Assembly (NCBI RefSeq): GCF_018417535.1
Contig: NZ_CP070978.1
Coordinates: 496,001 to 560,000 of the forward strand
From: Burkholderia pyrrocinia
GTDB lineage: Bacteria > Pseudomonadota > Gammaproteobacteria > Burkholderiales > Burkholderiaceae
Direction of reading: 5' to 3'
DNA: 64,000 nucleotides
A program made the position numbers and the translations under genes. Shown here one piece after another: positions 10,292-27,975 of the stretch. A model generated the notes under the pieces. The model saw only the letters and a program-made list of their open reading frames with translations. It did not search any database and was not told where the DNA came from. Position 1 is the stretch's first letter, and the number at the start of each line of letters is the position of its first letter.

Positions 10292-11233
10292 GTGAACTTC
10301 GTCGATACGATCCTCATCAGGCTCGCTGACCCGGCGGCGCGCAATGGCGTTTTCGACAGCGACAGCCTCGCGCAAATTGCATCGACGGTTTACGACACCA
10401 GTACGATGCTCATTCAAGGACCGTACAGCGCGGTCTTCGACGATATCCAGCTCGGCCTCGCAGTCCCGCGCATCGCCACCCTCGAAGGCTACTGGGGACG
10501 CGCGACAACGGGCGAGCGCACCGACTCGCAATTCACGCTGTCGGGGTTCGGCGAGAGCTCGATCCGCGTGGACGCATTCTGGCGCGGCGCGATCATCGCT
10601 CGCTCGACACCGCCTACCGGACATGTGAGCGCCGCACGCGGCAACGTCGTCGATGCAGGACAGATCGATGCGGAGATCGTGACCGCGCTCGGCGCGCTGC
10701 CTGTCGATCCGGCCGCACTCGAGAACGAGCGGCGCACGCGCCTGTTGACGCATCTGCGCGCGGCGTTCGCCCAGCCCGATCTGATGACCGGCGATCTGCT
10801 CGACCAGTGGCTGCGCGAAAACGGTGCGTCGTCAGTGGGCGACCTGATCACGAACTTGCGCGGCGTGGTCTACGCCAATCCCCTGCAGATCACTTTTTCG
10901 CCGCCGAACGACGTCTCGTCGCTACCCGCGCCGCTGCCGATCGGCAGCGCGCTGCTGATCCGGGACGTGGGCTTTTCGGTCGGCGACTTGCTCACGGAAT
11001 CAAAAATCGTTCGTCAGCAGCTCGGGCCGATGGGGCTCACGCGCGCGGTGGACACGAAGCTGCCGGTTCGCGAGCCGCTGCCGATCACGTGGATCGTGCC
11101 GGCCGCGGCGTTCGACGACACCGGCTGGCCGGGCGCCGCCGCAGGCATGGCGGCCGATGCCGCGCGAACCGCGCGGCGCACGGCGGCCGCGGGCTGGCTG
11201 GTGCTCCAGGGCATCGGCCTCGCCGTCGTCTGA
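10292..11233 (+). CDS. Unknown first protein of the contractile locus, 313 aa
   Basis: A 313-aa protein that opens the contractile injection locus. It starts at a GTG with AGGA about eight bases upstream. No signal peptide. The N-terminal part (FDSDSLAQIASTVYDTSTML, 21-40) and a hydrophobic-aromatic middle are followed by Ala-rich helices at the end. I recognise no family. Its position just before the sheath gene is where related loci keep cap, terminator or regulatory proteins, so it may be a tail-end or sheath-associated protein. It is separated from the sheath by 128 bases that include an 11-bp tandem repeat. Confidence 0.6.
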   Translation: MNFVDTILIRLADPAARNGVFDSDSLAQIASTVYDTSTMLIQGPYSAVFDDIQLGLAVPRIATLEGYWGRATTGERTDSQFTLSGFGESSIRVDAFWRGAIIARSTPPTGHVSAARGNVVDAGQIDAEIVTALGALPVDPAALENERRTRLLTHLRAAFAQPDLMTGDLLDQWLRENGASSVGDLITNLRGVVYANPLQITFSPPNDVSSLPAPLPIGSALLIRDVGFSVGDLLTESKIVRQQLGPMGLTRAVDTKLPVREPLPITWIVPAAAFDDTGWPGAAAGMAADAARTARRTAAAGWLVLQGIGLAVV

Positions 11234-11361
11234 GGACCAGGCTCATCGATTGAGTGGTCACTAGCGATCTAAACCCGGCCTAAACCTGGCATTACGAAAT
11301 TTTCCCTGGCCTGCACGGATCGCCCGTTTCGTGTTCAGAACTGGCATCAAAGGAGCAACTT
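11234..11361. promoter_or_regulatory. Leader of the sheath gene with an 11-bp tandem repeat
   Basis: The gap holds CTAAACCCGGC (11269-11279) directly followed by CTAAACCTGGC (11280-11290), a tandem repeat with one mismatch, and a short dyad AGTG/CACT near 11253-11262. A strong ribosome site (AAGGAG, six bases before the ATG) serves the sheath gene. The repeat could bind a regulator or modulate sheath expression relative to the first gene. No clear promoter hexamers were found. Confidence 0.35.
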
Positions 11362-12546
11362 ATGTCAGCAACCGTCCCTGCGGCGTTTCCCTTCATCCTG
11401 GTCAACATCGATACGTCTGCGTTGATGCCCATCGCGCAGCGCTCGCCTGGCGTGATCGCCATCGTCGGCAAGACCCCCGCCGGAGCAGACGGCGGCGATG
11501 CGGCATTCGACATGCCTACCGTTGTCGACACGGCGTCCGACGTGTCGCAGCACTTCGCGAAGATCAATGCCGATGGCAGCGTGGCCGATACGACGCTTTC
11601 GACGTCGCTCAAGCTCGCGATGCTGCAAAACCCGGCTCCCTCCAAAATTTACGGCGTCAAGGTGAACGGCACCGACTACGCCGGCGCGCTGGCGTCGCTC
11701 GAAGCCGCCGACGACGTCGACTTCGTCTGCCTCGCCAACGAGACCGACGTCGGCGTGGCGGCCGGCGGCGGGAATCCGCCGACCAACCTGCTGGCGCTCA
11801 AGGCGCACGTCGAGACCATGTCGTCGCAAGGCCAGAAGCGGCTCGGCGTGGCGATGGTCAATCCGGTGACCGTCAAGTCGCCGACTTACGTCCATGACGT
11901 CGACGCCACAGCCACGCCGCTAAAGAGCGACTCCAGCCGCATGGTGCTCGTGGCCGCGCGCGGCGCGACGGTCGACGTCGCCTCGGCTGCCACCGGCGCA
12001 ATTGCCGGCTATGCGCCGCAGGTCTCGATGGTGCTCAAGCAGGTGCGCGGCGTCAGCGTGCCGACTGCCAGCCAGTACGGGCCGAGCGAGATCAAGGGGC
12101 TCTCGGAGGCCGGCATCGTGCCGATCATCCAGCCCTCGCTGATCGTCGGCGGCGGCTTCTACTTCGGCGAGGGCCGCTGCTACACCACCGACGCCAGCCA
12201 GCTCTACATTGACATCGTGCGCGTGCTCGACGACATCGACTTTCGGCTCAAGGCTGGGCTGATCGGTTTGATCGGCGATTCGCGCATCACCAAGGCGGGC
12301 CTCACGCAGGTCAAGGTGCGCATCGATTCGATCCTCGGGCCGCTGCTCAACGCCGCCGTGATCGACGACTACTCGACCACGATCCCCGTGCTGAACATCC
12401 TGATGACGCCGGAATCGGCCTGGAGCGCGACCGACAGCTCGCTGGTCGTGACGGCGCGCGCGAACCGGACCGTCGACGTGTTCGTGTCGATCACCTATGG
12501 CCCGGCGGTACATCAGCTCCGCGTCACGCTGGCGCCGAGTTTCTGA
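11362..12546 (+). CDS. Contractile tail sheath protein
   Basis: A 394-aa sheath protein. The N-terminal region (SPGVIAIVGKTPAGADGGDA) and the central and C-terminal part (VSMVLKQVRGVSVP, IVPIIQPSLIVGGGFYFGEG, YIDIVRVLDDIDFRLKAGL) match the layout of phage and R-tailocin sheaths, where the C-terminal domain forms the contractile mesh. Length is near that of P2 gpFI. It would surround the inner tube and contract to drive it forward. It has a strong ribosome site and is followed 45 bases later by the tube gene, the order found in phage tails and extracellular injection systems. Confidence 0.88.
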   Translation: MSATVPAAFPFILVNIDTSALMPIAQRSPGVIAIVGKTPAGADGGDAAFDMPTVVDTASDVSQHFAKINADGSVADTTLSTSLKLAMLQNPAPSKIYGVKVNGTDYAGALASLEAADDVDFVCLANETDVGVAAGGGNPPTNLLALKAHVETMSSQGQKRLGVAMVNPVTVKSPTYVHDVDATATPLKSDSSRMVLVAARGATVDVASAATGAIAGYAPQVSMVLKQVRGVSVPTASQYGPSEIKGLSEAGIVPIIQPSLIVGGGFYFGEGRCYTTDASQLYIDIVRVLDDIDFRLKAGLIGLIGDSRITKAGLTQVKVRIDSILGPLLNAAVIDDYSTTIPVLNILMTPESAWSATDSSLVVTARANRTVDVFVSITYGPAVHQLRVTLAPSF

Positions 12547-12591: not shown

Positions 12592-13026
12592 ATGCCCGAC
12601 TGGAACACCCGGCTGGCCGTGTCCTATACGGCAAACAACCAGACCAAAACGATCACGCCGATCGATTCGTTCACCCCCACCTTCGCGCTCGCGGCGGAGC
12701 CGCTGCACTCGATCGAACACACGCACATCGGCGTGATCTACTCGCCGCAGGCGATGACATTCACGATGACCGTGAAGGCCATCGGCACGATCGCCGCCGA
12801 GCTGACCGCGCTGGCGATCAACCGCACGCCGTTCGATGTCACGCTGCAGGAATCGGCGAACGGCAACGACTGGTCGTACGCCTCGGTGGTGATGCACAAC
12901 TGCGTCATCACGAGCGCGGTGCCCTCCACCGCCCTCGTCACGGGTGCGCCTACGGCGACGTTCACCGGCTTCTGTCTCGGCGCGTCCGAGACCGACAAGA
13001 ACAACACGACCGCCACGCTGCCCTAG
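12592..13026 (+). CDS. Inner tail tube protein
   Basis: A 144-aa beta-rich protein directly after the sheath gene, with GAGGAG upstream of its ATG. Segments such as DSFTPTFALAAEPLHSIEHT and FDVTLQESANGNDWSYAS resemble tube subunits of contractile tails, which stack as hexameric rings. Size fits the family (about 140-170 aa). The assignment rests on position plus general pattern rather than a decisive motif. Confidence 0.65.
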   Translation: MPDWNTRLAVSYTANNQTKTITPIDSFTPTFALAAEPLHSIEHTHIGVIYSPQAMTFTMTVKAIGTIAAELTALAINRTPFDVTLQESANGNDWSYASVVMHNCVITSAVPSTALVTGAPTATFTGFCLGASETDKNNTTATLP

Positions 13027-13046: not shown

Positions 13047-13280
13047 ATGCCAAACGGACACGACACGCAGGATCCGACCTCGGGAACCCTCGTGCACGAC
13101 GGCCATTCGGTCGGCTGGTCGCTCGGTTCCGAAGCGGACGAGACGCGCGGCAGCGGCCCCCCGGAGATCCACTATCACTTCCCGGTGGAGATCGAAGTCC
13201 GCAACACGGTGGCGGCCATCGACGAGGACCGCCTGATTCACGCGACGCTGGCCCGGCTCGCCCGCGAGCTGGCCGGCTGA
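13047..13280 (+). CDS. Small protein, 77 aa, between tube and giant gene
   Basis: A 77-aa protein with an acidic/polar N-terminus and a C-terminal strand-helix unit (HFPVEIEVRNTVAAIDEDRL, 46-65, then ATLARLARELAG). It lies where P2-like tails encode the tape-measure chaperones E/E'. The terminal unit resembles the first 45 residues of the following 1590-aa protein, so the two may share a docking motif. It is short, soluble and probably a chaperone or connector. Only 17 bases separate it from the next start. Confidence 0.5.
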   Translation: MPNGHDTQDPTSGTLVHDGHSVGWSLGSEADETRGSGPPEIHYHFPVEIEVRNTVAAIDEDRLIHATLARLARELAG

Positions 13281-13297: not shown

Positions 13298-16200
13298 ATG
13301 CGGATCAACGTCAACATACCGGTCCGGCTGTCGGTGGATCTCGACGCGATCGAGCATCGTCCGGGCGACCTCGACGAAGCGCTCGCGGCCGCGATGACGC
13401 GCGCGCTGCGACGCTCGGCCACGGCGACGTCGCGCGCGGGCGACCCTTCGGCCATCGTCGTGCACGATCCGACCTTCACGTGGCGCGGCGCGAATCTGCG
13501 CAGCGTTTCGGCCGACACGCGCCACGACACCGAAGCGCGCCTCGCGCGCGTGATCCAGCGTTCGGCGCGCAGCGGCGGCGCGCTGGCGCGCACGCCGGCG
13601 GCGGCAACGCCGGGCGCGAGCCTGCGCCGGCGGCCGTGGCGCGGCTGGCAGACGCTCACGAGCATTAATTTTCACGCCGAGGTCGGCGACTACCTCGCTT
13701 ACGTCGACGACTCCATTCACAGCCGCCACGCCGACTACGGCACCATCTACGCGGACTACGAGGAGCAGTTGAAATGGGTCTCGCTGTGGGTCGTGCGAGT
13801 CGACCGTCCGTACCGGCTCTCGGATCTTTCGGCGGAACTGTCCGCACGCGGGACGGAGCTGAGCCATCTGCGCACCGGACGCGACGACGCGTTCTGGGTG
13901 TTGAGCGCATCGGAACGGGACCGGCAGCGCGTGATCCAGTTCGATCGCGACAACCTCGTGGCGGGCGCCACGCCCGACCTGTCGGGCAACAATCGCTACC
14001 TCAGGGCCTACGGCGGCGAGGTCTATCTGATGCCCGGCGCGCAGGTGATCTTCACGCTGATGGTCCTGCCGACCATCACAGTGGAGACCTATGCGCGGCT
14101 CGGCACGCCTGTCGACGTCGAGATCCGTAACCGCGACCTGGAGTTCCTGGTCTACCAGGACGGGTTTCGCGAAGCGCTGCGCGTCTCGTGGCCGGATTTC
14201 ATCGCCGCGATGGGCGACGAGACCACGATGCTGCACGTTTCGCCGGTCGAGGTAACGGCGCCGGTGAGCCCGCCGACGCTGGAGCTACTCGCCGAGAATC
14301 GCGACTTGCTGCCGCCCGCCGGCCAGCTCGCCTACCGCAAGCGCGACCTCCGCCTGCTCAACCAGGAAAACATCGATGCGCTGCCCGATGCCGTTCGCAC
14401 CGCTGTCGCGCCGCTGACGACCCCGGCCACGCTGGCGCTCGGCCCGGACAGCCGCTGGGGCCGCTGGCAGGCCGGATGGCGCGGCGCGCTGCTGTCCGCG
14501 ACCTTCACGCTGTCCGAGGACCAGCAGTTCGCGATCAGCAATCGCACGCATGCCGAGACGGTCGCGAATGCGATCGTCGATTTGCTGGGCCACTACCCGG
14601 ACGACTCGCTGGAACAGATCCCCTGGTGGAGCCGCCTCGACGGCATCTACACCGGCAACTTCGGAGCCTACGCTGGCGCGGACGGCGTTCGCACGATGTT
14701 CGACCTGGTGATGGAGACGCTAGAGGCGCGCGAGGGCGGCCGGTGGTTCAACGCGCTGCTGGACAAAATGGCGGCCACGCGCGGCGACGCCGCGCTGCAC
14801 TTTATCCAGGCGGCCACGGCGTCGCTGCGCTACAACGCGCATCCGCGCATCAGCCAGATGCGCGCCGACTACAACGCGGCGACGCGCGCGGCGCTCGCGA
14901 ACCGCTACTTCCCGGACAGCGGCGCCATGTGGCTGCACCAGGACGCCGATCAGCGCGTAGGGCTCAACGGGGTCGTCGCGGACGCGTACTCCGATTACGC
15001 GACGCACGCGCGCGTGCGGCACCTCGTCGAAACGCGCCGCGCGCAATTCGACGCCGCGCTGGAGACCGCGGCCAATCAGCTCCTCGCGGACATCATGGCC
15101 GGCCGCGTCGCTCAGGACTTCAGCAACGAGCAGTTCGCCAATGAAGCGATCAACCGCGCGGCGGCCGCGATCCACCTGACGAACGACGACTTCGACACCG
15201 TCAACCAGATCACGTCGCTGCGCGTCACCGCGATCGAGTTCGTGGTTGACCGCGGCATCGAGCGCTACAACGTAACGTTCAACGTGGTCCAGAAGATCGA
15301 GGGCGAAGCGAACTGGACCGACGTTCCCGGCACGAGCCGCAAGACCTCGGAACTCGATTTCGAGTGGCTCCTGTTCGGCTGGCAACTGGGCCGCATGGGC
15401 GACCGCTTCGAGAAGGTGGGGCTCGTGATCGGCGGTATCGCGGTGATCGCCGTCGCGTGGGAAGCCGGCATCATCGGCGCGCTGGTCGAGGCGGCCGGCG
15501 GCGCGGGGGCCGTGCTGACCTCGGTACTCATCTCGGAGATCCTCTATCTAGCGACCGCGAAGCACTACAGCCTCGAAGGCTTCGTGATGGCGGCAATCGA
15601 CGGCTACCTGTTCGCGCTGACCTTCCGCTTCGCGGGCATCGGCGGGCGCGCAATCGCGCTGCGCATCGGGCGCGCGACGATGCCGCAAATCGTCGGCGGC
15701 TGGGTCGCGGAGCGGCTGTTCGTGGGCGTCGTGGGCGGCTCGCTCGGCGGCGGCGCGGTCGTCTTCTCGCACGGGCTCGCCGACACCCTGCTGCACGACG
15801 GGCCAGGGCCGAGCCTCGGCCAATACGTGCGCGGGATGACGATAGGCGCCTTGTTCGGGCTGTTCGGCGAGTTCGTGATCGGTCCGGCGCTGCAGGGCGC
15901 GTTCCGTGTCGGCGGGCAGACTGTGCTGAACACCGTCGAGGACGCCGCCCGCGTGATCCGCGAATCGGGTGCTTCGCCGGCCCGCTATGCGGCCGAGATC
16001 TCGCAGGCGCTCTCCGCGATCCGCCAGCGTCTCGCGACCTTCCTCGAGGAATCGAGCGTCCGGACCATCATCGACGGTCTGCGCGAGCGCATGGCGACGA
16101 TCGGCGAGAATCTGACCGGAGGTGCCATCCGGCGGCGCTTCGAGTTCGCGATGTTCCGCCGGATCTTCGAACTGGCCGACGTCGGCATGGGCGCAGTCGA

Positions 16201-18070
16201 GACCGACGGGCTCGAAAGGCTCCTGTCGACGACCGAGGCCGGCGCGGCGCGCATGTCGCAGGAGGACCTGCTGGCGTTCCTGAACCGGGTGGCGACCGAT
16301 CCGGGCCGCGCGCGGCGACTGCTGAACGCGCTCGGGCGGCTTTCCGACGAACGCGCGAGCGCGCTGATCGGCGGCGGGCAGCTCGATGGCCTGGCTTCGT
16401 CGTCCAATCTGCTGCACCACCTGACGACCGGCGAGATCGACCATGTCGACCGCATCTGGGACGTGCTCTCGGGGCCATCGTTCCGGCTCTCGGTGGCCGA
16501 TTGCGATGCCTTCCTCGGCCGGCTCGCGCGCTTCAACGATGCGCAGCAGACCTCGGCGCTGGAAATGCTTCGTCGTCCGGAGCAACTCGTCACGCCGGAA
16601 GGTATCGCGCAGGCGCTCGAGAAAGGCGGCCTCGACGTTAGCGTCGGCGAGGGGCTCGACCGCCTGTACGGCGCGCTCGAGTCCGCGGCGGCGGACACGC
16701 TGATGCGCGCGATCCCGAGCGCCGATATGCCCGCGTACTTGCGCTGGCTCGGCTCGCTGCGGCAGGAAACCACGAATCAGCTTGCGCAGGACGGCTTCCT
16801 CGAACCGCTGGCGAGCGCGCCGCACGCGCTCGACTTCATCGGCCGCAATGGGTTCGATTCGTTCCGCGCGCTCGCGGCCGCGCATGGTCCGTTCGGCAAC
16901 ACGATTGCCGAGGCGGTGGCCGGTTTCGACGCCTTCGCCGGGGCGCTGCGCGCGTTTGCGCAGGACCAGCAGGATCTCGCGGTCGCCACGCTGCTGCGCA
17001 CCGGCAACCGCGTTCCGCCCGACGCCCTGCTGTTCGCGTTGCAGCAGCGGCTCACGCTCGACGCGGAACTCCAGCGCGCTCTGGACAACGTCTACGTCGA
17101 ACGCTCGGGCATGACCGTGCAGGAATTCCAGCGGCTCTCGGGCGCGCGCTTCGACTCTGCGCTGCGCGGGCTATACCGCACCGACTTGCCGCTCTGGCGC
17201 GAACTCGGGCACGTCGAGGCCATCGTACGCCACGACGAGGTGATGGAACTGCTGCGCCACGGCGCCAACCGCGCCACGTTCCGGTCCTTCGTGGGCCGCT
17301 ATCCCGGCAACGAAGGCGTGGCGATCGATGCGCTCGGCCGGCTCCTTTCGCGCGTGCGCACGCTGAGCGGCGGCAACCTGCAGCGATTCGAGATGACCGA
17401 CCTGATCCAGGCGCTCCAGTCGGTGACCGAACGCGGACCGACACCGATCGCCGAAATCGACCAGATCGCGGCAGATATTGGCCAGTCGGGATTTCCGACC
17501 CGCACGGTCGGCACCGGGCCGAGGGCCACCACCTTCCCGTCCGCGGCGGAGGAGGCGCGCGCGTACGTCCGGCTGCTCGGCGACAACGTCACGCCGACCC
17601 AGGCGCAAACGATGCTCACACTGCCAACCGATGTCAATGTGGCTAGAGTCGAAGTCGCGGGTGAAGGCGAGAGAGGTCCGGACGTCCTGCTCACGACCGA
17701 CACGGGGCAAACCATCGGCCGCGAGTCGGTGGCCACGCGCATTCCCACCGTCGACCGTGCCGATCCGCTCGGCTCGCTCCAGCGGAACCTGAACAGCGTG
17801 AGTCTCAGCACCAAGGTTGACGCATACGCCAGCGGTGGCACCTATGCCAGGCGTGGGGGGATTCGCTGGCTGCGCCGGGAGATCGACGTGCGCATCGATC
17901 CCTCCGTGGACGGCTTCTCCTATGACGATCTGCTCGCACAGATGCAGGCGGACGGCTCGCTCGCGCCGTTTCTGGACCGCGTGATCCGCGATAACGCGGG
18001 CTGGACGAATATCAGCCGGATTCGCTTCTACAATTCGCGGGGCGCCCTGATTCACTCCTGGACGCCCTGA
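13298..18070 (+). CDS. Giant protein (1590 aa) at the tape-measure position, with membrane segments and nuclease-like tail
   Basis: The largest gene of the locus. I start at the ATG at 13298; the open frame extends further upstream but overlaps the tube and 77-aa genes. The N-terminus (MRINVNIPVRLSVDLDAIEH) resembles the end of the 77-aa protein. Residues 1-700 are mixed beta and helical and highly charged. Residues about 705-835 hold several hydrophobic Gly/Ala-rich segments that could cross membranes. Residues 840-1440 are almost all helical. The last 145 residues change character: GERGPDVLLTTDTGQTIGRE (near 1455-1475) resembles a PD-(D/E)xK nuclease core, although the usual Lys is not evident. 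It may be a tape measure, an effector carried in the tube, or both. No family recognised. Confidence 0.65.
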   Translation: MRINVNIPVRLSVDLDAIEHRPGDLDEALAAAMTRALRRSATATSRAGDPSAIVVHDPTFTWRGANLRSVSADTRHDTEARLARVIQRSARSGGALARTPAAATPGASLRRRPWRGWQTLTSINFHAEVGDYLAYVDDSIHSRHADYGTIYADYEEQLKWVSLWVVRVDRPYRLSDLSAELSARGTELSHLRTGRDDAFWVLSASERDRQRVIQFDRDNLVAGATPDLSGNNRYLRAYGGEVYLMPGAQVIFTLMVLPTITVETYARLGTPVDVEIRNRDLEFLVYQDGFREALRVSWPDFIAAMGDETTMLHVSPVEVTAPVSPPTLELLAENRDLLPPAGQLAYRKRDLRLLNQENIDALPDAVRTAVAPLTTPATLALGPDSRWGRWQAGWRGALLSATFTLSEDQQFAISNRTHAETVANAIVDLLGHYPDDSLEQIPWWSRLDGIYTGNFGAYAGADGVRTMFDLVMETLEAREGGRWFNALLDKMAATRGDAALHFIQAATASLRYNAHPRISQMRADYNAATRAALANRYFPDSGAMWLHQDADQRVGLNGVVADAYSDYATHARVRHLVETRRAQFDAALETAANQLLADIMAGRVAQDFSNEQFANEAINRAAAAIHLTNDDFDTVNQITSLRVTAIEFVVDRGIERYNVTFNVVQKIEGEANWTDVPGTSRKTSELDFEWLLFGWQLGRMGDRFEKVGLVIGGIAVIAVAWEAGIIGALVEAAGGAGAVLTSVLISEILYLATAKHYSLEGFVMAAIDGYLFALTFRFAGIGGRAIALRIGRATMPQIVGGWVAERLFVGVVGGSLGGGAVVFSHGLADTLLHDGPGPSLGQYVRGMTIGALFGLFGEFVIGPALQGAFRVGGQTVLNTVEDAARVIRESGASPARYAAEISQALSAIRQRLATFLEESSVRTIIDGLRERMATIGENLTGGAIRRRFEFAMFRRIFELADVGMGAVETDGLERLLSTTEAGAARMSQEDLLAFLNRVATDPGRARRLLNALGRLSDERASALIGGGQLDGLASSSNLLHHLTTGEIDHVDRIWDVLSGPSFRLSVADCDAFLGRLARFNDAQQTSALEMLRRPEQLVTPEGIAQALEKGGLDVSVGEGLDRLYGALESAAADTLMRAIPSADMPAYLRWLGSLRQETTNQLAQDGFLEPLASAPHALDFIGRNGFDSFRALAAAHGPFGNTIAEAVAGFDAFAGALRAFAQDQQDLAVATLLRTGNRVPPDALLFALQQRLTLDAELQRALDNVYVERSGMTVQEFQRLSGARFDSALRGLYRTDLPLWRELGHVEAIVRHDEVMELLRHGANRATFRSFVGRYPGNEGVAIDALGRLLSRVRTLSGGNLQRFEMTDLIQALQSVTERGPTPIAEIDQIAADIGQSGFPTRTVGTGPRATTFPSAAEEARAYVRLLGDNVTPTQAQTMLTLPTDVNVARVEVAGEGERGPDVLLTTDTGQTIGRESVATRIPTVDRADPLGSLQRNLNSVSLSTKVDAYASGGTYARRGGIRWLRREIDVRIDPSVDGFSYDDLLAQMQADGSLAPFLDRVIRDNAGWTNISRIRFYNSRGALIHSWTP

Positions 18071-18816: not shown

Positions 18817-19311
18817 ATGGCCACCAGCTACCAGAACTACGCGAACATCCCGTCGGCGATCATCTCGGACGGCATCCTGCCGATTCCGATCTGGGCCGTC
18901 ACGACGATGAAGCTCCAGGAAACGTATCACCTGCCGCCGATCGGCTCCACCGGCGCGAAGGCAATCGTGGGCGTGCACGACGACACGATCGACCTGACCG
19001 GCGTGCTGGTGGGCATGGAGCGTTTCGCGTGGAAGCTCGCGCTCGAAACGCTGGCCGAATCGAGCAAGCGCGGCACCGCGCTCGGCTCGTTCACTGGCGG
19101 CAAGGTGTCGGGCCTGATCCTGATCACCGCGATGACGATCCGCACCGACATGCAGATCCAGCAGCTGACCTTCACGGCGAGCTCGGCCAAGCGCGACGCG
19201 CTCGACGTGATGATCCAGCTCGCCTACATGCCGCTGCCCGGCGCGCTCGGCAAGCTGCTCGATCTCGCGAGCGTGGGCGTGGGCGCGCTGATGGACGCAG
19301 GAGGGAACTGA
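18817..19311 (+). CDS. Tail protein, gpU-like, 164 aa
   Basis: A 164-aa protein with GGGAGG upstream and an ATG immediately after the preceding TAA. Its pattern (TMKLQETYHLPPIGSTGAKA, DLTGVLVGMERFAWKLALET, DALDVMIQLAYMPLP) resembles P2 gpU-type tail completion or tube-initiating proteins, which sit between tube and baseplate hub. In P2 the order T-U-D matches giant-gene, this gene, hub gene here. Alternatively it is a second tube protein. No signal peptide. Confidence 0.5.
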   Translation: MATSYQNYANIPSAIISDGILPIPIWAVTTMKLQETYHLPPIGSTGAKAIVGVHDDTIDLTGVLVGMERFAWKLALETLAESSKRGTALGSFTGGKVSGLILITAMTIRTDMQIQQLTFTASSAKRDALDVMIQLAYMPLPGALGKLLDLASVGVGALMDAGGN

Positions 19312-19313
19312 CG

Positions 19314-19961: not shown

Positions 19962-22084
19962 GCCTCCCGACGCTGTCCGCGAACCAGGTGATGATCGGCA
20001 ACGCGTCCGGCTGGGCGCTCACTTTCCACCAGGAAGAAAACGGGAAGATCTCGCAGAAGCAGGCGCCGCTGACCCTCTGCTCCGCCGATTACGAGGCGCG
20101 GCTGAGCGCAACGCTGCCGGCCGGGCTCGAACCCGGTTCCTGCTCGATCACGATCGAGGGCATGACCGACGCGCATTACGCGCAGATCGCCCAGACCGGT
20201 GCGGCGTCGCAGCCGACGGTCGTGCAGCTCTATCTGTACTGGGTCGACGCGAATGCGAGCCCGCTCGGCTATCTCGCCAACCTCGGCGGGCTGACCGACA
20301 CCCTCGGGCGCTTCGACCCGGCGTCGATGGCTTCGTCGCTGGTCGCGGTGCTGCGCATCGTCAAGGTGACGCGCGCGGTGGGCGTGCGCCGCTACGAGGC
20401 GACGATCGAGTGCAAGGAGCGGGTCTATCAAAACCTCTCGACGATTCGGATCGCGCAGCCAGTGGGCGGGACAAAGCTCAGCGAAGCGGTCACGACGATC
20501 GGACAGCGCACGGGCATCGACATCAAGTTGCAGGGCTTCGGCGCGGCCGGCTCGATGCCGGCTAGCAGTGGCAACCCCAGCGGCAGCCCGGGGGCGAGTT
20601 CCAGCGCCAATTCCGCCGCAAGCCCCGGCGACGAGCAGGTGTCGATCGAATCGGGCGGCACCTATGCCACCGCGCTCGCGGACCTCGCGACCCGGATGGA
20701 GCACGCGAGCGGCAAGTACGGGCGCGGCCTGATGTTGATCCGCGACGGCTCGCTTTATTTCGGAGTCCGTCAATTTCCGCTCGCCGGCGATTCGAAGCCG
20801 CTGACGCTCGGCAGCGGACTACTCGCAGTCGAGACGCTCGATCGCGTATCGGCCGATCCGGACGCGACGCCCGATTCGGCAAAGCCGGCTGCGGGATCGG
20901 CCACGACGTCCGCCGCCACACAGGCAACGACGCCGGCAACGACACCCGCCGCAACGCGCCGCCAGTTCAAGCTCACGCTCAAGGGCCGGCCCGACCTCAA
21001 GCCCGGCGACATGGCGACCTTCGACAGCCCCGCCGAGGAGATGGTGACCCAACCGAGCTTTCTGAACGCGCTGCTCGGCGGCGCATTCGCCGGCTCGATT
21101 CTTCCGGGGATGGGCGCCGACACGATCGCCCATCCGATCAATCTTTACGTGACGTCGGTGACGCATGCGCTTGGCCGCGCGACCGGGTTCGTGACGACCG
21201 TGGCGGGTGTCGAGATCGTGGACCTGTCGCGGCCGTGGGATACGGCCTCCGGCACGGGCGCTCATGCGCCCGGCCGCACGACCGGCACTACGGGCGCCCG
21301 ATCGGACGGCGCCGCGTCGGCGGTCTCGGCGATCCGCCAGGCGGTGCGCGAAGGCGCCGAAACACCGCGCAGCGTCGACATCGGCGAGGTGCGCGGCTTT
21401 CATCCGTCCGGCGACGGCACGACCGAGCCGCCGGGCCAGACCGAGCGCGTCTTTCGCGGGCTGGTCGAGCCGGACGGGCGCGCGAACCAGGCCCGGCGCC
21501 TCGATATCCGGCGTGACAGCCCCGCGCCGATCGAAGGCGTGAGCTACGCGTCGCCGTTCGCGTGGGGCAAGTGCGGGCTTGTGCTGCCGCGCTACCCCGG
21601 CATGCGCGTGGTGCTCGCCCATCGCAACGGCCGCGCCGAGGACCCGGTGGAAGTCGGCGCGTTGTGGACGTCGGGGCACGGGCCGACGTCGCAGGCCGGC
21701 GACTACTGGCTGATCCTGCCTGTCGGCGTCGATCAGGCAAGCCGCAGCCAGGTGGCCGACACGGCGACGCCCGCCGAGTATGCCGGCAAGGTCACGAACG
21801 ACCTGATCGACGCCGACGGCAACCGCGTCATCGAGGTCGGTGAGCTCACGCTGCGCGTCGGCAGCGACCATCTCAAGAATGCAGGCGAGCGGCCCGCGCG
21901 GCCGGCGGACCAGGGATCGGTGACGATCGAGCACGCGAGCGGGCAGTCGTCGATCGTCATGAAGCAGGACGGCAGCGTGATCATCACCGCGAAGAACATC
22001 ACGCTCGACGCCGGGACCGGGACCATCACGATGAAGGCGAACAGCGTCGACGTCCAGGTGCAGTCCAACATGAACGTTCATTGA
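19958..22084 (+). CDS. Baseplate hub and spike protein (gpD/gpV or VgrG-like fusion)
   Basis: A 708-aa protein. The N-terminal 380 residues resemble the hub (gpD-like) fold, interrupted by a Ser/Gly/Ala-rich linker (about 200-220) and a Thr/Ala-rich linker (about 310-330). The central part (RVFRGLVEPDGRANQARRLD through KCGLVLPRYPGMRVVLAHRN, about 490-560) looks like the gp5/V OB-fold. The last 70 residues form beta-repeats (SVTIEHASGQSSIVMKQDGS) like the spike helix of VgrG. It would form the trimeric centre of the baseplate and carry the PAAR-like tip encoded next. The start is coupled to the previous gene by ATGA. Confidence 0.8.
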   Translation: MSLPTLSANQVMIGNASGWALTFHQEENGKISQKQAPLTLCSADYEARLSATLPAGLEPGSCSITIEGMTDAHYAQIAQTGAASQPTVVQLYLYWVDANASPLGYLANLGGLTDTLGRFDPASMASSLVAVLRIVKVTRAVGVRRYEATIECKERVYQNLSTIRIAQPVGGTKLSEAVTTIGQRTGIDIKLQGFGAAGSMPASSGNPSGSPGASSSANSAASPGDEQVSIESGGTYATALADLATRMEHASGKYGRGLMLIRDGSLYFGVRQFPLAGDSKPLTLGSGLLAVETLDRVSADPDATPDSAKPAAGSATTSAATQATTPATTPAATRRQFKLTLKGRPDLKPGDMATFDSPAEEMVTQPSFLNALLGGAFAGSILPGMGADTIAHPINLYVTSVTHALGRATGFVTTVAGVEIVDLSRPWDTASGTGAHAPGRTTGTTGARSDGAASAVSAIRQAVREGAETPRSVDIGEVRGFHPSGDGTTEPPGQTERVFRGLVEPDGRANQARRLDIRRDSPAPIEGVSYASPFAWGKCGLVLPRYPGMRVVLAHRNGRAEDPVEVGALWTSGHGPTSQAGDYWLILPVGVDQASRSQVADTATPAEYAGKVTNDLIDADGNRVIEVGELTLRVGSDHLKNAGERPARPADQGSVTIEHASGQSSIVMKQDGSVIITAKNITLDAGTGTITMKANSVDVQVQSNMNVH

Positions 22085-22095
22085 GGAGCACCGCC

Positions 22096-22443
22096 ATGCC
22101 AGGCGTGCTGACCACCGCGAGCAACGTGACGTGCGGCCACGCGGGAAGCGTATCGACGTCGAGCTCCACGAAGCTGCAGGTGAACGGAACGGCCGTTTTG
22201 CTTCAAAGCGGCATCGTGGGCCAGTCGATCGCGGGATGTATTACGCCGAATTCGTCCAACCCGCCCTCGCAGCTGTGCAAGACGGTCTCGTCGGTGACGG
22301 CCGGCTCCGCGACCAAGCTTCAGGCCAATGGCCAGCCGGTGATTCTCGACACGCTGGCGGGCACCACGGACGGCGTCGTGCCCAATGCCCAGCCAAACCT
22401 GCTCGCGGGTACCGCCGGCCAAACGAAACTCACCGCGAGTTAA
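22096..22443 (+). CDS. PAAR-like spike-tip protein
   Basis: A 115-aa protein behind GAGGAG, immediately after the hub/spike gene. It shows the PAAR-like pattern of short Gly/Val/Thr strands with paired Cys (TCGHAG at 12-17, AGC near 47, LCKT near 60) and the repeated motif KLQVNGTAVLLQ and KLQANGQPVILD. Such proteins cap the spike and sharpen it, sometimes carrying effectors. Order hub, tip, gp25 fits extracellular contractile systems. Confidence 0.7.
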   Translation: MPGVLTTASNVTCGHAGSVSTSSSTKLQVNGTAVLLQSGIVGQSIAGCITPNSSNPPSQLCKTVSSVTAGSATKLQANGQPVILDTLAGTTDGVVPNAQPNLLAGTAGQTKLTAS

Positions 22444-22502
22444 GACAGACGCGAATCAGGACAACGCAACTGCAAACGCGAGGGCATCCCCAGGGAGGAT
22501 CG

Positions 22503-22997
22503 ATGATCGACCAACAGAAAGACCCGTTGCGGCGCAGGGTGCTGGGCTGGGGCGTCGCGTGCGACCTCGTCGAGGCGACCGCCGATATCGGCCGCGACAT
22601 CCGCTTCGTAACGACGAACAGCCTGCTCGATCTCGCGCGTGTCGAACTGATCGACAACCTCGGCCAGTCGCTCTCCATCGCGCTGACGACGGCGCTCGGA
22701 AGCGACCTGTTCAACGTCGGCTACGGCTTCGACGGCATCAACGCCATCGCCGAGGAGACGAACCCGGTCCTGATGCGTGAGCGCATTCGCATCGCGATCA
22801 TCAAGGTGCTGCGCGCCGACCCGCGCATCCGGCGCATCGTCGACGTCAAGCTGGAAGACGGCCGTCTCGACGCCGTGACGGCCGGCAGCAGCATTCTCGA
22901 TGTGCGCGTCGCCTTCGAAACGCTCTCGGGCGACGCGTACTCCATCAACATCGATCAAATCGCGCTGGGCGCGGGCCAGGTGACGACGAATGGCTGA
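22503..22997 (+). CDS. Baseplate wedge protein, gpW/gp25-like
   Basis: A 164-aa protein of the gp25/gpW lysozyme-like baseplate family. RIRIAIIKVLRADPRIRRIV (about 99-118) is the typical conserved helix-strand with its Arg/Pro pattern, and the N-terminal part resembles the domain's start. It joins the hub to the sheath in the baseplate. The ATG at 22503 has GGGAGG upstream. The stop overlaps the gpJ-like gene start by 8 bases. Confidence 0.85.
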   Translation: MIDQQKDPLRRRVLGWGVACDLVEATADIGRDIRFVTTNSLLDLARVELIDNLGQSLSIALTTALGSDLFNVGYGFDGINAIAEETNPVLMRERIRIAIIKVLRADPRIRRIVDVKLEDGRLDAVTAGSSILDVRVAFETLSGDAYSINIDQIALGAGQVTTNG

Positions 22998-24438
22998 CCA
23001 GAATCCGACCAGTATCGACACCGCCGACGTGCTGGCGGTGGACGCGTCCGTGATCCGGACCACCAGCGCGGCCCCTTACGGCGTCACGCCGCAAGGGTTC
23101 TACGCGAAGCCGTTCGCACGGCTGCTCGCCGAAAAGCTCGCGCTCGGCCGCGCGCTGTTCGGCACCGACCTCGACCTCACCTCGGGCTCCGTCGTGCGCA
23201 AGCTCTTCGAGGTCGCAGCGCTCGAGGATGCCCGCACCTGGACGGCGCTCGGTGCGATCTACGACAATATGTTCGTGGTGTCGGCCGAGGGCCAGGCGCT
23301 GAGTGGCCTAGGCGCGGAGCTCGGCCTGCCGCGCCCCTACCTGGAGGCGACTGGCAAGATCACGCTGAAGCTCACGGGCACGCTGCCGGCTGGCGTCGCG
23401 CAGATCGCGATCCCGCGCGGCGCGCGGCTGCTGACGCCCGGCGGACATCACGTCGCGACCGACGAATCGGCGACGATCACCGCCGCGAGCCCGCAGGCCG
23501 ACATCGCCGTCGTCGCGTTCTACCCGGGGCCCTCGCACAATCTCGATCCGGCCGTCACGGCGCCGGACGGCAGCCATCCCGAGCAGATCGACCGCTGGAA
23601 CCCCTACGACACGAAGCTCGCCGACTTGCGTGCGGCCGAAGAAGCCGCGAACAAGACGCTGATGACCATCACGCACAGCGGGAAGCTGGCCGGCGGCGAA
23701 TTGCAGTGGCCGGACGCGCGCTATCGCTCGATGCTGCTGCGCGCGCCGCGCTCGATCTGGACCGTCGACGCGATCCAGATCGCCGTGTCGCTCGTGCCGG
23801 GCGTGCGCCAGGCGCTGATCCGCGACGCGTGGGGCGGGCTCGACATCAACCAGTCGATCTTCGGCAACTTCAACTTCGTCGAGCGCGTGTTCGGCAGCGA
23901 GCGCGATCTCGGGAATCCTTACTATTTCACCGTGCTCGTGTCCCCCACGGATTCGGCGATCTGGGATGGGCCCGACGGGCTCGAGGCCTCCGTGCTTTCG
24001 GCCATCGAAGATCTGCGTCCGCTCGGCATTTTTCCGCAGGTGCAGCAGGCCGAGCAGATCGGCATCTGCGTGAACGCGGACCTGGTCGTGCGCGGCATTC
24101 CCATGCCGTTCGGCTCGAAGGCGTCCGTCAACGCGTCGGCGCCGGCCCAGGCGCTGAAGGCGCGGCTCAACGAACGGTTGCGCCGCTACGTCGACAGCCT
24201 GTCGTTCGGCGAGCCGGTGCGGGTTTCGGAAGTGATCTGGGCGATGATGAGCGAGCCCGGTATCACCGACGTCCAGAACGTCCAGCTGCTCCGCTATCCG
24301 CCGGCGATGGACAACATCGACTTCACTCAGCCGCCCCCGGGCGGCCCAGCCGGCCCCGGCTGCGGCCTGAACATCGATCTGGCGATCAACCAAGTGGCCG
24401 ACTTCGTGGACACCGCCACGGAGCTGACGATCATATGA
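22990..24438 (+). CDS. Baseplate J-like protein
   Basis: A 482-aa gpJ/gp6-type baseplate protein. The order is an N-terminal helical region (FAKPFARLL, SGSVVRKLFEVAALEDARTW, about 53-75), a beta sandwich (TGKITLKLTGTLPAGVAQIA, 121-140) and a C-terminal half with PPGGPAGPGCGLNID near the end. Such proteins form the wedge ring that triggers sheath contraction. It follows gp25 with an 8-base overlap, as in P2 (W-J) and extracellular injection systems. Confidence 0.8.
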   Translation: MADQNPTSIDTADVLAVDASVIRTTSAAPYGVTPQGFYAKPFARLLAEKLALGRALFGTDLDLTSGSVVRKLFEVAALEDARTWTALGAIYDNMFVVSAEGQALSGLGAELGLPRPYLEATGKITLKLTGTLPAGVAQIAIPRGARLLTPGGHHVATDESATITAASPQADIAVVAFYPGPSHNLDPAVTAPDGSHPEQIDRWNPYDTKLADLRAAEEAANKTLMTITHSGKLAGGELQWPDARYRSMLLRAPRSIWTVDAIQIAVSLVPGVRQALIRDAWGGLDINQSIFGNFNFVERVFGSERDLGNPYYFTVLVSPTDSAIWDGPDGLEASVLSAIEDLRPLGIFPQVQQAEQIGICVNADLVVRGIPMPFGSKASVNASAPAQALKARLNERLRRYVDSLSFGEPVRVSEVIWAMMSEPGITDVQNVQLLRYPPAMDNIDFTQPPPGGPAGPGCGLNIDLAINQVADFVDTATELTII

Positions 24439-24468: not shown

Positions 24469-26829
24469 ATGCCTGACATCCTGAAGCCCGACCGCTGGGC
24501 GGCTTCGTCGCAAGGCAATATGTTCGCGAATCTCACGACGCCGTTTGCCGGCGGCGCCCGTGCGCGAGACGTCGCGTGCGACGCCACGGGCCAGGCAGCA
24601 ATGCCCGAGGTGACTCGCGACCCGCTGCTCGTCGTGGCGCCGGCCGCCGCGCTCGGTACAACCGGTCTGCGAGTCACCGCCGTGCTGCTTCCGGGCAACG
24701 CGCCGGCCAGTTTCGGGACCGTGGTGTTCGCCCCCTGGAGCGAGGCGGGCGCGTTTTTGCCGCTCCATCTGCCGACGGTCGACCCGAACGTCCGGACCGC
24801 CGCGCCCTTCACGCTCCTCCTGACGCTGGCCTCGATCGCCGCCGACGGCACGGCGACCGCCATCGCCGCCAACCGGATCGCGGGCCTGATCCGGCTTCAA
24901 CTGATCGAGGGGATCTTCGGCCGCCTCCTCTACGCGCTTTCTGCCGAGAAGCACACGATCCGGCGTCAGGCGCGCGAGCTGGCCGCGATGCGGCAACTGT
25001 CCGGCGCGGCGGGCGATGCGCTCGACCGGGTGGGCGCGGAAGTGGGCGTGCCGCGCCTCGCGGACCGGCTCGCCGCCGATGCGGGCCACATCGTCCTCCA
25101 GCCATGGACCGATGCCGGCGGCGTGCCGATTCCAGAACCCGACGACAACTACCGTCGCCGGCTCGCGCTGTTCAGGCCGTTCCTGCGCGCGACCCGGGCG
25201 CGGCTCGACGACACGCTCAACGGCCCCGGCGCCAGCAACGCGCCCAATGCCGGGCTCCTCGCCGGCCTGGGCGTGCAGGCGCGCCTGCGGATCGACGAAC
25301 AGGTCAATCCGTTCGCGGTCGCGGCCCATCTGATCAGTGCAGGCAGCGACGCCGTGCGCACCAACTTCCTCGGCTTCATTCGCGCGGCCCATCTGATCTG
25401 GCCTCAGGATGAAGCGACGGCGAAAGGCGTCCACCTCGCGCGGGCGCTGTCCCCCGAACGCCGCGCCAGCGTCGAGACATTGCGCGCGAGCCTGCGCCAG
25501 AGCTTCGATTTCCCGGCCCAGGCCGCGCTGGCGCCGCTGCTTGCGTCCGCGCTGGAGCGCGTCGGCCGTTGCCGGCGTGCGCTCGGCCAGGCCGCGCACT
25601 GGAGCGTCACGCGCGCGCAGGACGGCAGCGCGGGCAGCCGCTACGAGCTGGGGCTGGGCGTCGACCTCAAACCACCGGCTGCGGCGGACCTCGACGCGCT
25701 CGCCGCGGCCGTCGCTCACCCGCCGGCCATCGCCGACGCGGAACTGGCGGCGCTCGTGAGCGCGATGGCGCCGGTGCCCTCCGCGACCGATCCCACCGGC
25801 GCGTGGTTCCTGAATGCGTGCGGCCTACAAACCGTCTATACGGTCGATGCCGCGACGCTCTACGTTTCGCACCTGCCCGCGTTCGGCCTCGTGATCGCCG
25901 GGCCGGCCAACGCAGCTGTGGACGCAGCGGTCAATCTGCAGGCCGCTTACCAGGCGCCGGGCGACCCTGCGGTGAACGTCGTGATCCACGACGGGCTGGC
26001 GGCCTCGCTCGCCCAGTGGACGGCGTCGGGCGCCGCCGCGTGGACCGCGCTTTCGGCTGTCGATGCCACCACCGCGTGGAACGCCGCCGCGCCTCACGCG
26101 GCGGCGGACCCGCCACTCGCCGTGTTCCGGGCCGCCGGCCTTGCCGACCTCACGGTGCCCGCGCCCATCGTCGCCCAACTGGAGGTGCTCCCGGCGGAGC
26201 TCGTCACCGCGATCGCGCTGCCGGCCGCGCTGGCCTCGGCGGTGCTGGCCGGCACGCCGTCGGCGGCCGACGACCTGAAGCGGCTCGTCGGCCTGCTCGC
26301 GGCGAACGGTCTCGCCTCGGTGCTGCCGTTCACCACCACCGACCACCGCGTGATCCTGACCATCGGCGCGATCGGCCTGCCCGGCGCGGGCGTGAATCTG
26401 TCCGATCGCCGCTCGGTCGGCTTCCGCTGGTACACCGTCGCGCTCGCGGGCAGCGGCGGCAAAATCAAGCCGATCGGCAGCCGGACCGTCTTCACGTCCG
26501 CATCGGCCGGGCTTACGGCGGTCGTCGTACTCGGCTACGCGCGCCGGCCGGGCCTGAACGACCCCTACGAATTCCGGACCGATTTGCCGGACGGCACGCT
26601 GCTCACGATCCCGCAGTACGAATATCTGATGAACGTGCTCGGGGAAATCCTGCCGATCGGCGTGCTGGTCAACACCTTCGCGCTGCGCCAGAGCGGCGTC
26701 GACCTGAACGGCGACGGCCATCCCGATCCGCTCCCGCCGGGCGCTGCGCGCACCTTCCGCCCGTTCCGGCAAGACCGCCATCGCGGTCTAGTCGTTCCGC
26801 CACTGACCGCCGCCGACGCCGGCGCATAG
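24469..26829 (+). CDS. Large baseplate protein, gpI-like, 786 aa
   Basis: A 786-aa protein after gpJ. The N-terminal 300 residues contain helical, wedge-like sequence (IRRQARELAAMRQLSGAAGD near 164-183), consistent with a gpI or Afp12-like role. It has a long Ala-rich middle (about 400-620). A beta-rich part near 630-720 ends with DLNGDGHPD (about 745-753), an EF-hand-like calcium loop. It is far longer than P2 gpI, so it may fuse wedge and accessory domains. The start has AAGGAGG upstream, 30 bases after gpJ. Confidence 0.6.
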   Translation: MPDILKPDRWAASSQGNMFANLTTPFAGGARARDVACDATGQAAMPEVTRDPLLVVAPAAALGTTGLRVTAVLLPGNAPASFGTVVFAPWSEAGAFLPLHLPTVDPNVRTAAPFTLLLTLASIAADGTATAIAANRIAGLIRLQLIEGIFGRLLYALSAEKHTIRRQARELAAMRQLSGAAGDALDRVGAEVGVPRLADRLAADAGHIVLQPWTDAGGVPIPEPDDNYRRRLALFRPFLRATRARLDDTLNGPGASNAPNAGLLAGLGVQARLRIDEQVNPFAVAAHLISAGSDAVRTNFLGFIRAAHLIWPQDEATAKGVHLARALSPERRASVETLRASLRQSFDFPAQAALAPLLASALERVGRCRRALGQAAHWSVTRAQDGSAGSRYELGLGVDLKPPAAADLDALAAAVAHPPAIADAELAALVSAMAPVPSATDPTGAWFLNACGLQTVYTVDAATLYVSHLPAFGLVIAGPANAAVDAAVNLQAAYQAPGDPAVNVVIHDGLAASLAQWTASGAAAWTALSAVDATTAWNAAAPHAAADPPLAVFRAAGLADLTVPAPIVAQLEVLPAELVTAIALPAALASAVLAGTPSAADDLKRLVGLLAANGLASVLPFTTTDHRVILTIGAIGLPGAGVNLSDRRSVGFRWYTVALAGSGGKIKPIGSRTVFTSASAGLTAVVVLGYARRPGLNDPYEFRTDLPDGTLLTIPQYEYLMNVLGEILPIGVLVNTFALRQSGVDLNGDGHPDPLPPGAARTFRPFRQDRHRGLVVPPLTAADAGA

Positions 26830-26838
26830 GAGATCGAA

Positions 26839-27975
26839 ATGGCTGTCAATACACTGCAACTCGATGGAATGGCGATCTCCGACGTGATGAAGTCCATTCG
26901 GGACACGGGCGTCGGCGATTCGGAAGCGTCGATCATCCTCGGCAACTGGTTGATCCAGCAGGGCGCGCGCCAGCAGCGGGTCTTCAACTATCAGACCGAC
27001 TTTCCGGCCACGGAGCCCGACTGCGTCGAGACCTTCACGCCGACTTTCCACCACACGGACTGGGTGGACGGCGAGAGCGTCGTACAGGCCCAGCAATCGG
27101 CGGGCGAGGAAGGGTTCAACTCGCGCCTGCGCAAGATCGAGCAGGATTTCGCCGCCGTGCGCACGGACCTCGGCCAGGTATTCGCGTGCCTCGCGCACAT
27201 GCGCGCCGAGATCCGCAGCCTGCTCGACGAGCTGCGGACCCAGATCAATCTGATCAACGCGGACCTGTTCAACCTGGCGCAGGCGCACGGAACCTACCAA
27301 CCGCCGAGCTTCCCCCCGGTGTCCTTCATTCCGCCCTTCGACGCCACGAACGCGCATTTCGTCGGTTCGACGAAATATTTTGACAAGGACGTCGCCGTCT
27401 GGCAGACCAGCCAGGGGACGATCATGCTGCCCAACGTGACGCCGACGCCGTCGAACCCGGCCAGCGATCCGCGCGTCTCGGGTACGGCGAGCCTGGCGAA
27501 GTTCATGACGTCGAACCCGCAACTCCTCCAGCAGTTCGGCGGCAAGCCGATCACCAAGGCGGACCTGATCAAGAACTACGGCACGCAGACGCTCGACAAC
27601 GGCATGAGCGTCGCCGACGCCGTCAGCATTCTTCCGGATACGGCCTCGTATGCGACCCCGGATGTGCTCGTCTCCGACCTCGCCGAGCGCCAGGCCGGCG
27701 CGATTCGCTCGTCGGGCGGGAGCGACGTGGTCAACGCGGCGCTCGGCGTCCAGGGCGCGCCTGGCGCGGCTTCCGGCGCAGCAATCGCCAACCTGCCCGG
27801 CCTGTCATCGAGTGCCGCCGCCGCGCTGAGCAAGAGCGGCATCACCACGGTCGGGCAACTCGCGGCCGCCAACCCCACCGACATCACCAAGGCGCTGTCG
27901 ACAGGAGGCGTTGCGATGAATTCGGGCGACGTGGCCGCGACCTCGGCGCTGGCCAAGACGTTGACGCACCTCTAG
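26839..27975 (+). CDS. Terminal locus protein with helix-hairpin-helix end, 378 aa
   Basis: A 378-aa protein closing the locus. The N-terminal part is helical and charged, with a coiled-coil-like stretch (LRKIEQDFAAVRTDLGQVFA, near 96-115). A Pro/aromatic middle follows (PPSFPPVSFIPPF). The last 60 residues read like a helix-hairpin-helix unit (NLPGLSSSAAAALSKSGITT then VGQLAAANPTDITKAL). It may be a fibre, a docking protein or a DNA-contacting part. Its stop codon shares CTAG with the oppositely oriented gene remnant that follows. Confidence 0.55.
   Translation: MAVNTLQLDGMAISDVMKSIRDTGVGDSEASIILGNWLIQQGARQQRVFNYQTDFPATEPDCVETFTPTFHHTDWVDGESVVQAQQSAGEEGFNSRLRKIEQDFAAVRTDLGQVFACLAHMRAEIRSLLDELRTQINLINADLFNLAQAHGTYQPPSFPPVSFIPPFDATNAHFVGSTKYFDKDVAVWQTSQGTIMLPNVTPTPSNPASDPRVSGTASLAKFMTSNPQLLQQFGGKPITKADLIKNYGTQTLDNGMSVADAVSILPDTASYATPDVLVSDLAERQAGAIRSSGGSDVVNAALGVQGAPGAASGAAIANLPGLSSSAAAALSKSGITTVGQLAAANPTDITKALSTGGVAMNSGDVAATSALAKTLTHL

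What the first reader, a model, noticed from the sequence alone, without database searches (positions are those of the whole stretch)
10292..27975. Contractile injection locus with no capsid, lysis, ATPase or fibre genes
Seen: sheath, tube, small protein, giant gene, gpU-like, hub/spike, PAAR-like tip, gp25, gpJ and gpI-like genes in one plus-strand array. Known: P2 tails run FI-FII-E-T-U-D and extracellular injection systems also need an AAA+ ATPase and a cap. Inference: this is a stripped or divergent injection system rather than a prophage tail, with a 313-aa first gene and a 378-aa last gene of unknown type. It is the best candidate for an undescribed system.
Basis: partly seen in the sequence, partly recalled or inferred. 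Interest (0 to 1): 0.8.

Follow-up and report, generated by a model that had tools for sequence, protein, structure and literature searches.

The report
Overlooked contractile injection system carrying toxin
A complete, non-phage "spring-loaded needle" gene cluster of a rarely recognised type sits between a phage and a type VI secretion cluster, and probably injects a large protein whose end part differs between bacteria like an exchangeable toxin warhead.

Summary
The array at 10,292-27,975 is real: 14 intact plus-strand genes (a 77-aa one included), under purifying selection where measured. It is not a prophage tail: a separate P2-like prophage with its own sheath and P2-type capsid lies to the left, and separate T6SS genes to the right. 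The sheath search found 693 proteins, among them Cyanobacteria, Nitrospira, Acidobacteria and Gammaproteobacteria, yet no relative in phage records or IMG/VR. Eleven genes have relatives in the same order on a Streptomyces canus plasmid. No product reaches a Pfam cut-off, so the Pfam criterion of the survey I read would not collect it. The 1,590-aa giant protein is probably cargo, not a plain tape measure: together with g5 it is missing from that slot in S. canus, it has hydrophobic segments at 703-865, and its C-terminus differs in distant relatives; the S. canus one ends in an AHH nuclease. Best reading: a divergent, minimal contractile injection lineage with polymorphic toxin cargo. No AAA+ ATPase, DUF4255 cap, tape measure or lysis family was recognised. 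Closest in print is the S. davawensis CIS with its Tme effector; I could not compare the sheaths. New variant of a known kind; function untested.

The parts
10292..11233 (+). g1, 313 aa, first gene; unknown type, conserved partner of the sheath (slot of a tail terminator, inferred)
   Evidence: 88 homologues; locus tags next to the sheath's in Cyanosarcina and Nodosilinea; 17 exact contig-length matches between the listed sheath and g1 proteins; g1 profile hits S. canus 2.7e-9; AF2 pLDDT 88.4, no Foldseek match
11362..12546 (+). contractile sheath, 394 aa
   Evidence: phrog_279 1.8e-6; 22 of 31 members hit phrog_23, 18 of 31 phrog_279; 693 proteins in its search, itself included
12592..13026 (+). 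probable inner tube, 144 aa
   Evidence: position after the sheath; 43% identity to the S. canus gene in the same slot; 96.7 bits against at most 6.3 in shuffles; no family match
13047..13280 (+). small gene, 77 aa, between tube and giant gene; unknown
   Evidence: ORF; 90-95% in the Paraburkholderia copies; 42% over 36 aa with the 62-aa S. canus gene in the same slot, 19.2 bits, 0 of 492 reported shuffles as high; no Pfam match
13298..18070 (+). giant cargo/effector candidate, 1590 aa, differing C-terminus (mechanical ORF begins 12944; ATG 13298 preferred from homologues)
   Evidence: 10 proteins in its search, itself included; C-terminal exchange; S. canus relative ends in Pfam AHH nuclease 4.4e-7; AF2
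18082..18816 (+). g5, 244 aa, directly downstream of the giant gene; immunity protein or chaperone candidate (inference)
   Evidence: 11-nt gap; no S. canus hit at E<=1; no match in Pfam, PHROGs at E<=0.1, or NCBIfam
18817..19311 (+). g6, 164 aa, probable tube-hub connector / tube initiator (inference)
   Evidence: 34% to S. canus gene; 51.1 bits against at most 5.4 in shuffles
19314..19961 (+). g7, 215 aa, unknown
   Evidence: 87-93% in Paraburkholderia; not above shuffles against the S. canus gene in that slot
19958..22084 (+). hub plus spike, 708 aa
   Evidence: S. canus relative matches baseplate hub phrog_196 1.2e-7; alignment A5; 105.8 bits against at most 3.3 in shuffles
22081..22443 (+). 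spike-tip (PAAR-like) candidate, 120 aa
   Evidence: position; 41% to S. canus; no PHROG match
22440..22997 (+). gp25-like sheath initiator / wedge, 185 aa
   Evidence: phrog_975 2.6e-8; Pfam GPW_gp25 17.2 bits, below cut-off 27.2
22990..24438 (+). gpJ-like baseplate wedge, 482 aa
   Evidence: phrog_6 1.6e-32; profile hits phage baseplate structures 9cuy, 9zd7, 21vq
24469..26829 (+). gpI-like baseplate wedge, 786 aa
   Evidence: phrog_6 4.6e-4; S. canus relative in the same slot, 27.8 bits against at most 1.7 in shuffles
26839..27975 (+). last gene, 378 aa, baseplate-attached adhesin/fibre candidate (inference)
   Evidence: residues 65-134 shared with the S. canus gene in the same slot; 25.3 bits against at most 6.2 in shuffles

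Best explanation
A complete contractile injection system of a divergent lineage, derived from a myophage-type tail and maintained as a bacterial gene cluster. Hub/spike, tip, gp25, J and I proteins would build a baseplate on which tube and sheath polymerise. The giant protein, encoded between tube and hub genes, would be loaded at the tube/hub by its N-terminal part. Sheath contraction would drive tube, spike and giant protein through a target membrane, the hydrophobic segments 703-865 would insert there, and the exchangeable C-terminus (from about residue 1,250) would be the toxin. g5 may be its immunity protein. Shown: gene content, conservation, non-phage distribution of the sheath, synteny with S. 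canus, modular giant protein. Inferred: assembly, loading, firing, toxicity and target. With no lysis family recognised, whether particles are released, stay in the cytoplasm or are anchored is open; membrane anchors were not looked for beyond family scans.
For: Sheath and gpJ/gp25/gpI matches. 693 proteins in the sheath search, with named hosts in Cyanobacteria, Nitrospira, Acidobacteria and Gammaproteobacteria (the Acidobacteria label recalled), with 0 in 50,697 phage records and 0 confirmed in two viral-contig scans; hub and tube also without a phage match. Eleven genes in the same order in S. canus, each above its shuffles. Giant gene and g5 have nothing in that slot in S. canus, as a cargo cassette would behave. 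Giant protein conserved to about residue 1,250, then different in P0127, P0128 and P0130; AHH nuclease on the S. canus relative. Mixed alpha/beta model for giant 1-690, not one long coiled coil. Purifying selection.
Against: No particle, secretion or toxicity has been seen. The giant/S. canus kinship is weak: 40.5 bits in the full-sensitivity run and tblastn 1.8e-13 in a small set, but only 9.9 bits (E 0.016) with default filters, where gpI gave no S. canus hit at all. No fold or family match for the giant protein or g1; the giant model is poor (pLDDT 63.6). gpJ has five partial phage matches (18-20% of the query). Outside Burkholderiaceae gene context was read only in S. canus; elsewhere co-occurrence rests on contig lengths and locus tags. 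The window's own C-terminus matches no family. Rare in Burkholderiaceae: 3 of 144 and 1 of 65 genomes.
Confidence: 0.62

Rival explanations
1. The giant protein is a tape-measure-derived effector: it sets tube length and is also the ejected cargo, like Tme of Streptomyces davawensis and Sle1 of S. lividans.
For: It lies in the tape-measure slot and is the largest ORF of the array; it has hydrophobic segments; Tme is described immediately upstream of baseplate genes, with transmembrane helices and a nuclease C-terminus (PMC11126660).
Against: No PHROG, Pfam or NCBIfam tape-measure match (HHpred-type search not available); residues 1-690 model as mixed alpha/beta; in S. canus the relative lies at the 3' end and only a 62-aa gene lies between tube and g6; no DUF4157.
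Confidence: 0.25
2. The cluster is a distant member of the multi-phylum CIS group described with S. davawensis, so the lineage is already known.
For: Both are spread over distant phyla, have a giant gene before baseplate genes, and a plasmid-borne member (PMC11126660).
Against: The sheaths of that study came from the eCIS database and the group is defined partly by a DUF4157 N-terminus, not found here; the window's sheath has no Pfam match.
Confidence: 0.25
3. A tailocin or decaying prophage tail that kills by membrane puncture, the giant gene being its tape measure.
For: The recognised structural genes are tail-like; a P2-like prophage is adjacent.
Against: No lysis family found; different sheath from the prophage's; sheath, hub and tube without match in phage records; C-terminal exchange and AHH nuclease; purifying selection in the 13 genes measured.
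Confidence: 0.08
4. The array is an accessory of the neighbouring T6SS and shares its ClpV.
For: T6SS genes flank it in the window and T6SS-like remnants flank it in P. sacchari.
Against: No T6SS gene seen in the 6 kb right of it in P. tagetis or P. caffeinitolerans (by eye) and none annotated in the S. canus stretch.
Confidence: 0.04

Closest known systems
Streptomyces davawensis CIS with Tme effector (PMC11126660: abstract, sections 6 and 22, passages)
   Same: Multi-phylum distribution; large gene just upstream of baseplate genes; hydrophobic segments; a plasmid-borne member; for Tme a nuclease C-terminus
   Different: Tme has DUF4157 and remote tape-measure homology, neither found here by family scans; its sheath was not available for comparison
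Streptomyces canus NBC_01585 plasmid cluster (NZ_CP109336, L006; read as DNA, not met in any paper seen)
   Same: Eleven related genes in the same order; related giant protein
   Different: 34% sheath identity; giant gene at the 3' end with AHH nuclease; extra Hint-like (by eye) and LysM genes; no g5 or g7 counterpart found
eCIS superfamily (Afp/PVC/AlgoCIS/tCIS/CIS-Sc)
   Same: Sheath, tube, hub, tip, gp25, J, I; modular cargo
   Different: No Pfam core domain over cut-off; no AAA+, DUF4255 or DUF4157 recognised; sheath profile matches no PDB chain at E<=1; none of seven PDB rows of the gpJ profile is named as an eCIS protein
Myophages with simple baseplates (phi92, Pam3; Mu recalled)
   Same: gpJ nearest to phage baseplate wedge entries; similar gene order (recalled)
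   Different: No head, terminase, tape-measure or lysis family
Type VI secretion system
   Same: Injects toxins; no tape measure (recalled)
   Different: No TssBC, TssJLM or ClpV match inside the array

Membership tests
eCIS (eCIStem Pfam criterion, PMC8213781) | at least four linked genes with eCIS Pfams, three different | tested here: not met
   14 of 14 products: none over cut-off, GPW_gp25 below it; rule from passages; the survey's extra HMMs were not available
eCIS | AAA+ ATPase (Cis15) | tested here: not met
   no AAA match among 14 products in Pfam or 13 in PHROGs
eCIS | DUF4255 cap | tested here: not met
   no Pfam match; a cap of another family is not excluded
eCIS / Tme group | DUF4157 on or beside the effector | tested here: not met
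   no match at E<=1 in giant protein, nor at E<=0.05 in four relatives and S. canus
S. davawensis CIS group | sheath in its clade | not testable with these tools
S. davawensis CIS group | giant gene between tube and baseplate genes | tested here: met
Contractile injection system in the broad sense | contractile sheath plus baseplate, no head genes in the array | tested here: met
P2-like prophage tail | P2-type sheath and FI-FII-E-T-U-D order | tested here: not met
   the only Phage_sheath_1 match of the genome is in the prophage, not here; order differs
R-type tailocin | lysis cassette and tape measure | tested here: not met
   no such family match; fibre inconclusive
T6SS | TssB/C, TssK, TssJLM, ClpV in the array | tested here: not met
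   no match; T6SS genes are separate, minus strand
Polymorphic toxin | conserved N part with exchanged C-terminal domains | tested here: met
   identity profile; AHH; activity not tested
Polymorphic toxin | cognate immunity gene downstream | tested here: inconclusive
   g5 is in the right place, no family match

The most novel reading that the evidence does not exclude
A widespread contractile injection lineage, independently domesticated from a myophage tail and missed by profile-based surveys, works with no tape measure, AAA+ ATPase or DUF4255 cap and delivers giant three-part toxins (docking, membrane-insertion, exchangeable warhead).
Probability: 0.4. Interest if true: 0.78.

Novelty: new variant of a known kind. 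Interest (0 to 1): 0.62.

Why it matters
The two surveys of contractile injection systems that I read in part start from known families (PMC8213781: eCIS Pfams and published HMMs; PMC12210884: genes of eight known systems). A conserved lineage that known families miss would mean the diversity of injection systems is undercounted, and would give a minimal machine in which to ask how tube length and cargo loading work without a recognised tape measure or AAA+ protein. The sheath alignment is a ready search profile.
Full report
What is there. Fourteen plus-strand genes fill 10,292-27,975 with small gaps or overlaps, except for 128 bases before the sheath. Against three Paraburkholderia copies 13 proteins are 74-96% identical and dN/dS is 0.06-0.53 in all 33 comparisons made of 39 possible. 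DNA similarity with P. sacchari begins at 10,048; it ends at 27,975 in P. sacchari and P. tagetis and 28,485 in P. caffeinitolerans, so this stretch is the shared unit. A consensus scan finds no more promoters or terminators than shuffles do.

It is not the neighbouring prophage. The genome holds one Pfam Phage_sheath_1 match, 19 kb left of the window. Around it lie tail, capsid-like and terminase-like genes (by eye); the capsid matches the P2 family model at 1.6e-94, while the terminase-like ORF tried had no NCBIfam match. A phage replication gene (Phage_GPA 1.2e-75) is inside the window at 2,311-4,218. To the right, minus-strand VgrG, ClpV, TssC and TssM match NCBIfam. In P. tagetis, P. sacchari and P. 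caffeinitolerans the array sits beside ordinary metabolic genes, with no phage gene seen; the left side was read only in P. sacchari (names by eye).

Identity of the genes. The sheath reaches PHROG tail sheath at 1.8e-6; 22 of 31 members of its alignment match phrog_23 and 18 of 31 phrog_279, best 6.5e-15. gpJ matches phrog_6 at 1.6e-32 and, as a profile, seven PDB sequences, best 3e-10, mostly named phage baseplate or wedge proteins and none named as an eCIS protein. gp25 matches phrog_975. The S. canus hub matches baseplate hub at 1.2e-7. No product reaches a Pfam cut-off (14 of 14); the one structural family among the matches below it, for gp25, is GPW_gp25 (with Sheath_initiator at 0.18). 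NCBIfam gives nothing near a cut-off for the 11 scanned. As a profile the sheath matches nothing in the PDB at E<=1.

Distribution. 693 proteins passed E 0.01 in the sheath search, itself included (7,998 candidates scored; 120 listed). Named hosts among those listed are Paraburkholderia, Cyanosarcina, Nodosilinea, Nostoc, Nitrospira, Candidatus Acidoferrum, Vicinamibacterales, Ectothiorhodospiraceae and Gammaproteobacteria, several of them metagenome-assembled; identity is 62-72% outside the closest four. No match in 50,697 phage records and none confirmed in two viral-contig scans; hub and tube have no phage match either, gpJ five partial ones. In genomes, samples overlapping: 2 of 398 of the family, 1 of 398 of the phylum, the own one, 2 of 399 of the order, one a weak partial hit, 1 of 369 of the class, 3 of 144 of the P. 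sacchari genus, 1 of 65 of the own genus. G177 is taken to be P. sacchari from its equal contig length.

g1 belongs to the system. 88 homologues. In Cyanosarcina and Nodosilinea its locus tags directly neighbour the sheath's. Of 120 listed sheath and 88 g1 entries, 17 share the exact longest-contig length, against 0-2 for each offset of 1 to 7 bases. Its fold, modelled at pLDDT 88.4 and pTM 0.65, has no convincing match. Its slot, before the sheath, is where a Mu-type tail terminator lies (recalled), so a terminator or cap role is possible but not shown.

A distant syntenic relative. A 269-kb S. canus plasmid carries relatives of g1, sheath, tube, the small gene, g6, hub, tip, gp25, J, I and the last gene in this order, with a giant relative at the 3' end. 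Each scores above all its shuffles (300 made per pair; 500 for the small gene). g5 and g7 have no counterpart. Thus giant gene and g5 look like a cassette set between the small gene and g6. With default filters the giant match is only E 0.016 and gpI is not found. The g1 profile finds its S. canus gene at 2.7e-9; the other profiles of that call contained the S. canus row.

The giant protein. Its search found 10 proteins, itself among them. In P0127, P0128 and P0130 identity is highest around residues 600-1,000 and falls from about 1,200-1,300 on to 26% or less with many gaps; S. canus is near 20% throughout. Hydrophobic stretches lie at 703-865, with one more at 242-262. Against S. canus, segments 1-690 (11.9 bits) and 690-1,000 (21.8) beat all shuffles and 1,000-1,590 does not. 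S. canus ends in an AHH nuclease domain. Residues 1-690 model as mixed alpha/beta and 690-1,050 as low-confidence helices; no fold match. This is the layout of a polymorphic toxin. One contig length links a cargo relative (P0127) with a 66% sheath (P0057).

How it probably works is given under Best explanation. Nothing past sequence and models has been shown: no particle, injection or toxicity. Length control, loading and release are open; the absence of an ATPase, cap or tape measure means only that no known family was recognised.

Comparison with print. The eCIStem survey kept groups of at least four linked genes with eCIS Pfams, three of them different, and supplemented this with published HMMs (PMC8213781, passages); this array has no such Pfam over cut-off. 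A metagenome survey built its gene families from eight known CISs and dropped clusters with fibre and tape measure but no ATPase (PMC12210884, sections 5 and 12). The nearest described system is the S. davawensis CIS, in a clade of distant phyla, whose Tme effector lies just upstream of baseplate genes, has transmembrane segments and a nuclease C-terminus; its group is defined partly by DUF4157 (PMC11126660: abstract, sections 6 and 22, passages). S. lividans Sle1 is another tape-measure-like effector (PMC13277306, passages). I could not obtain the S. davawensis sheath, so kinship is undecided. Searches of the open library that found nothing nearer. PMC8894136 and PMC9230969 were seen in passages only; PMC11566945 and PMC12998442 as outline and abstract.

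Verdict. Observation confirmed, interpretation supported with the giant gene re-read as cargo; a new variant of a known kind, interest 0.62.

Noticed in passing
window 1-8506 and G000:C2 ~471000-504500 (L008, L009): A P2-like prophage with its own sheath and capsid ends just left of the array; a phage replication gene, a ParB-like and a Dam-like gene are in the window.
   Followed up: partly
window 33762-60000: A T6SS cluster on the minus strand (VgrG, ClpV, TssC, TssM matched; others by eye).
   Followed up: partly
window 28711-33740: A 1,522-aa Rhs protein on the minus strand with a small gene (28711-29142) directly downstream, possibly its immunity gene.
   Followed up: no
L012:2945-9400 (P. 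sacchari): T6SS-like remnants, including a shortened ClpV-like ORF, lie between the injection array and the flanking metabolic genes (by eye).
   Followed up: no
L006:10678-17207 and 29827-37747: The S. canus cluster is flanked by a patatin-like protein, a DNA/RNA non-specific endonuclease, a Hint-like protein (by eye) and a LysM protein; candidate further cargo.
   Followed up: no
[not shown]
   Followed up: partly
window 26839-27975, residues 314-355 of the product: Sub-threshold DUF4332/helix-hairpin-helix-like stretch near the C-terminus of the last gene (Pfam 19.7 bits, cut-off 23.2).
   Followed up: no
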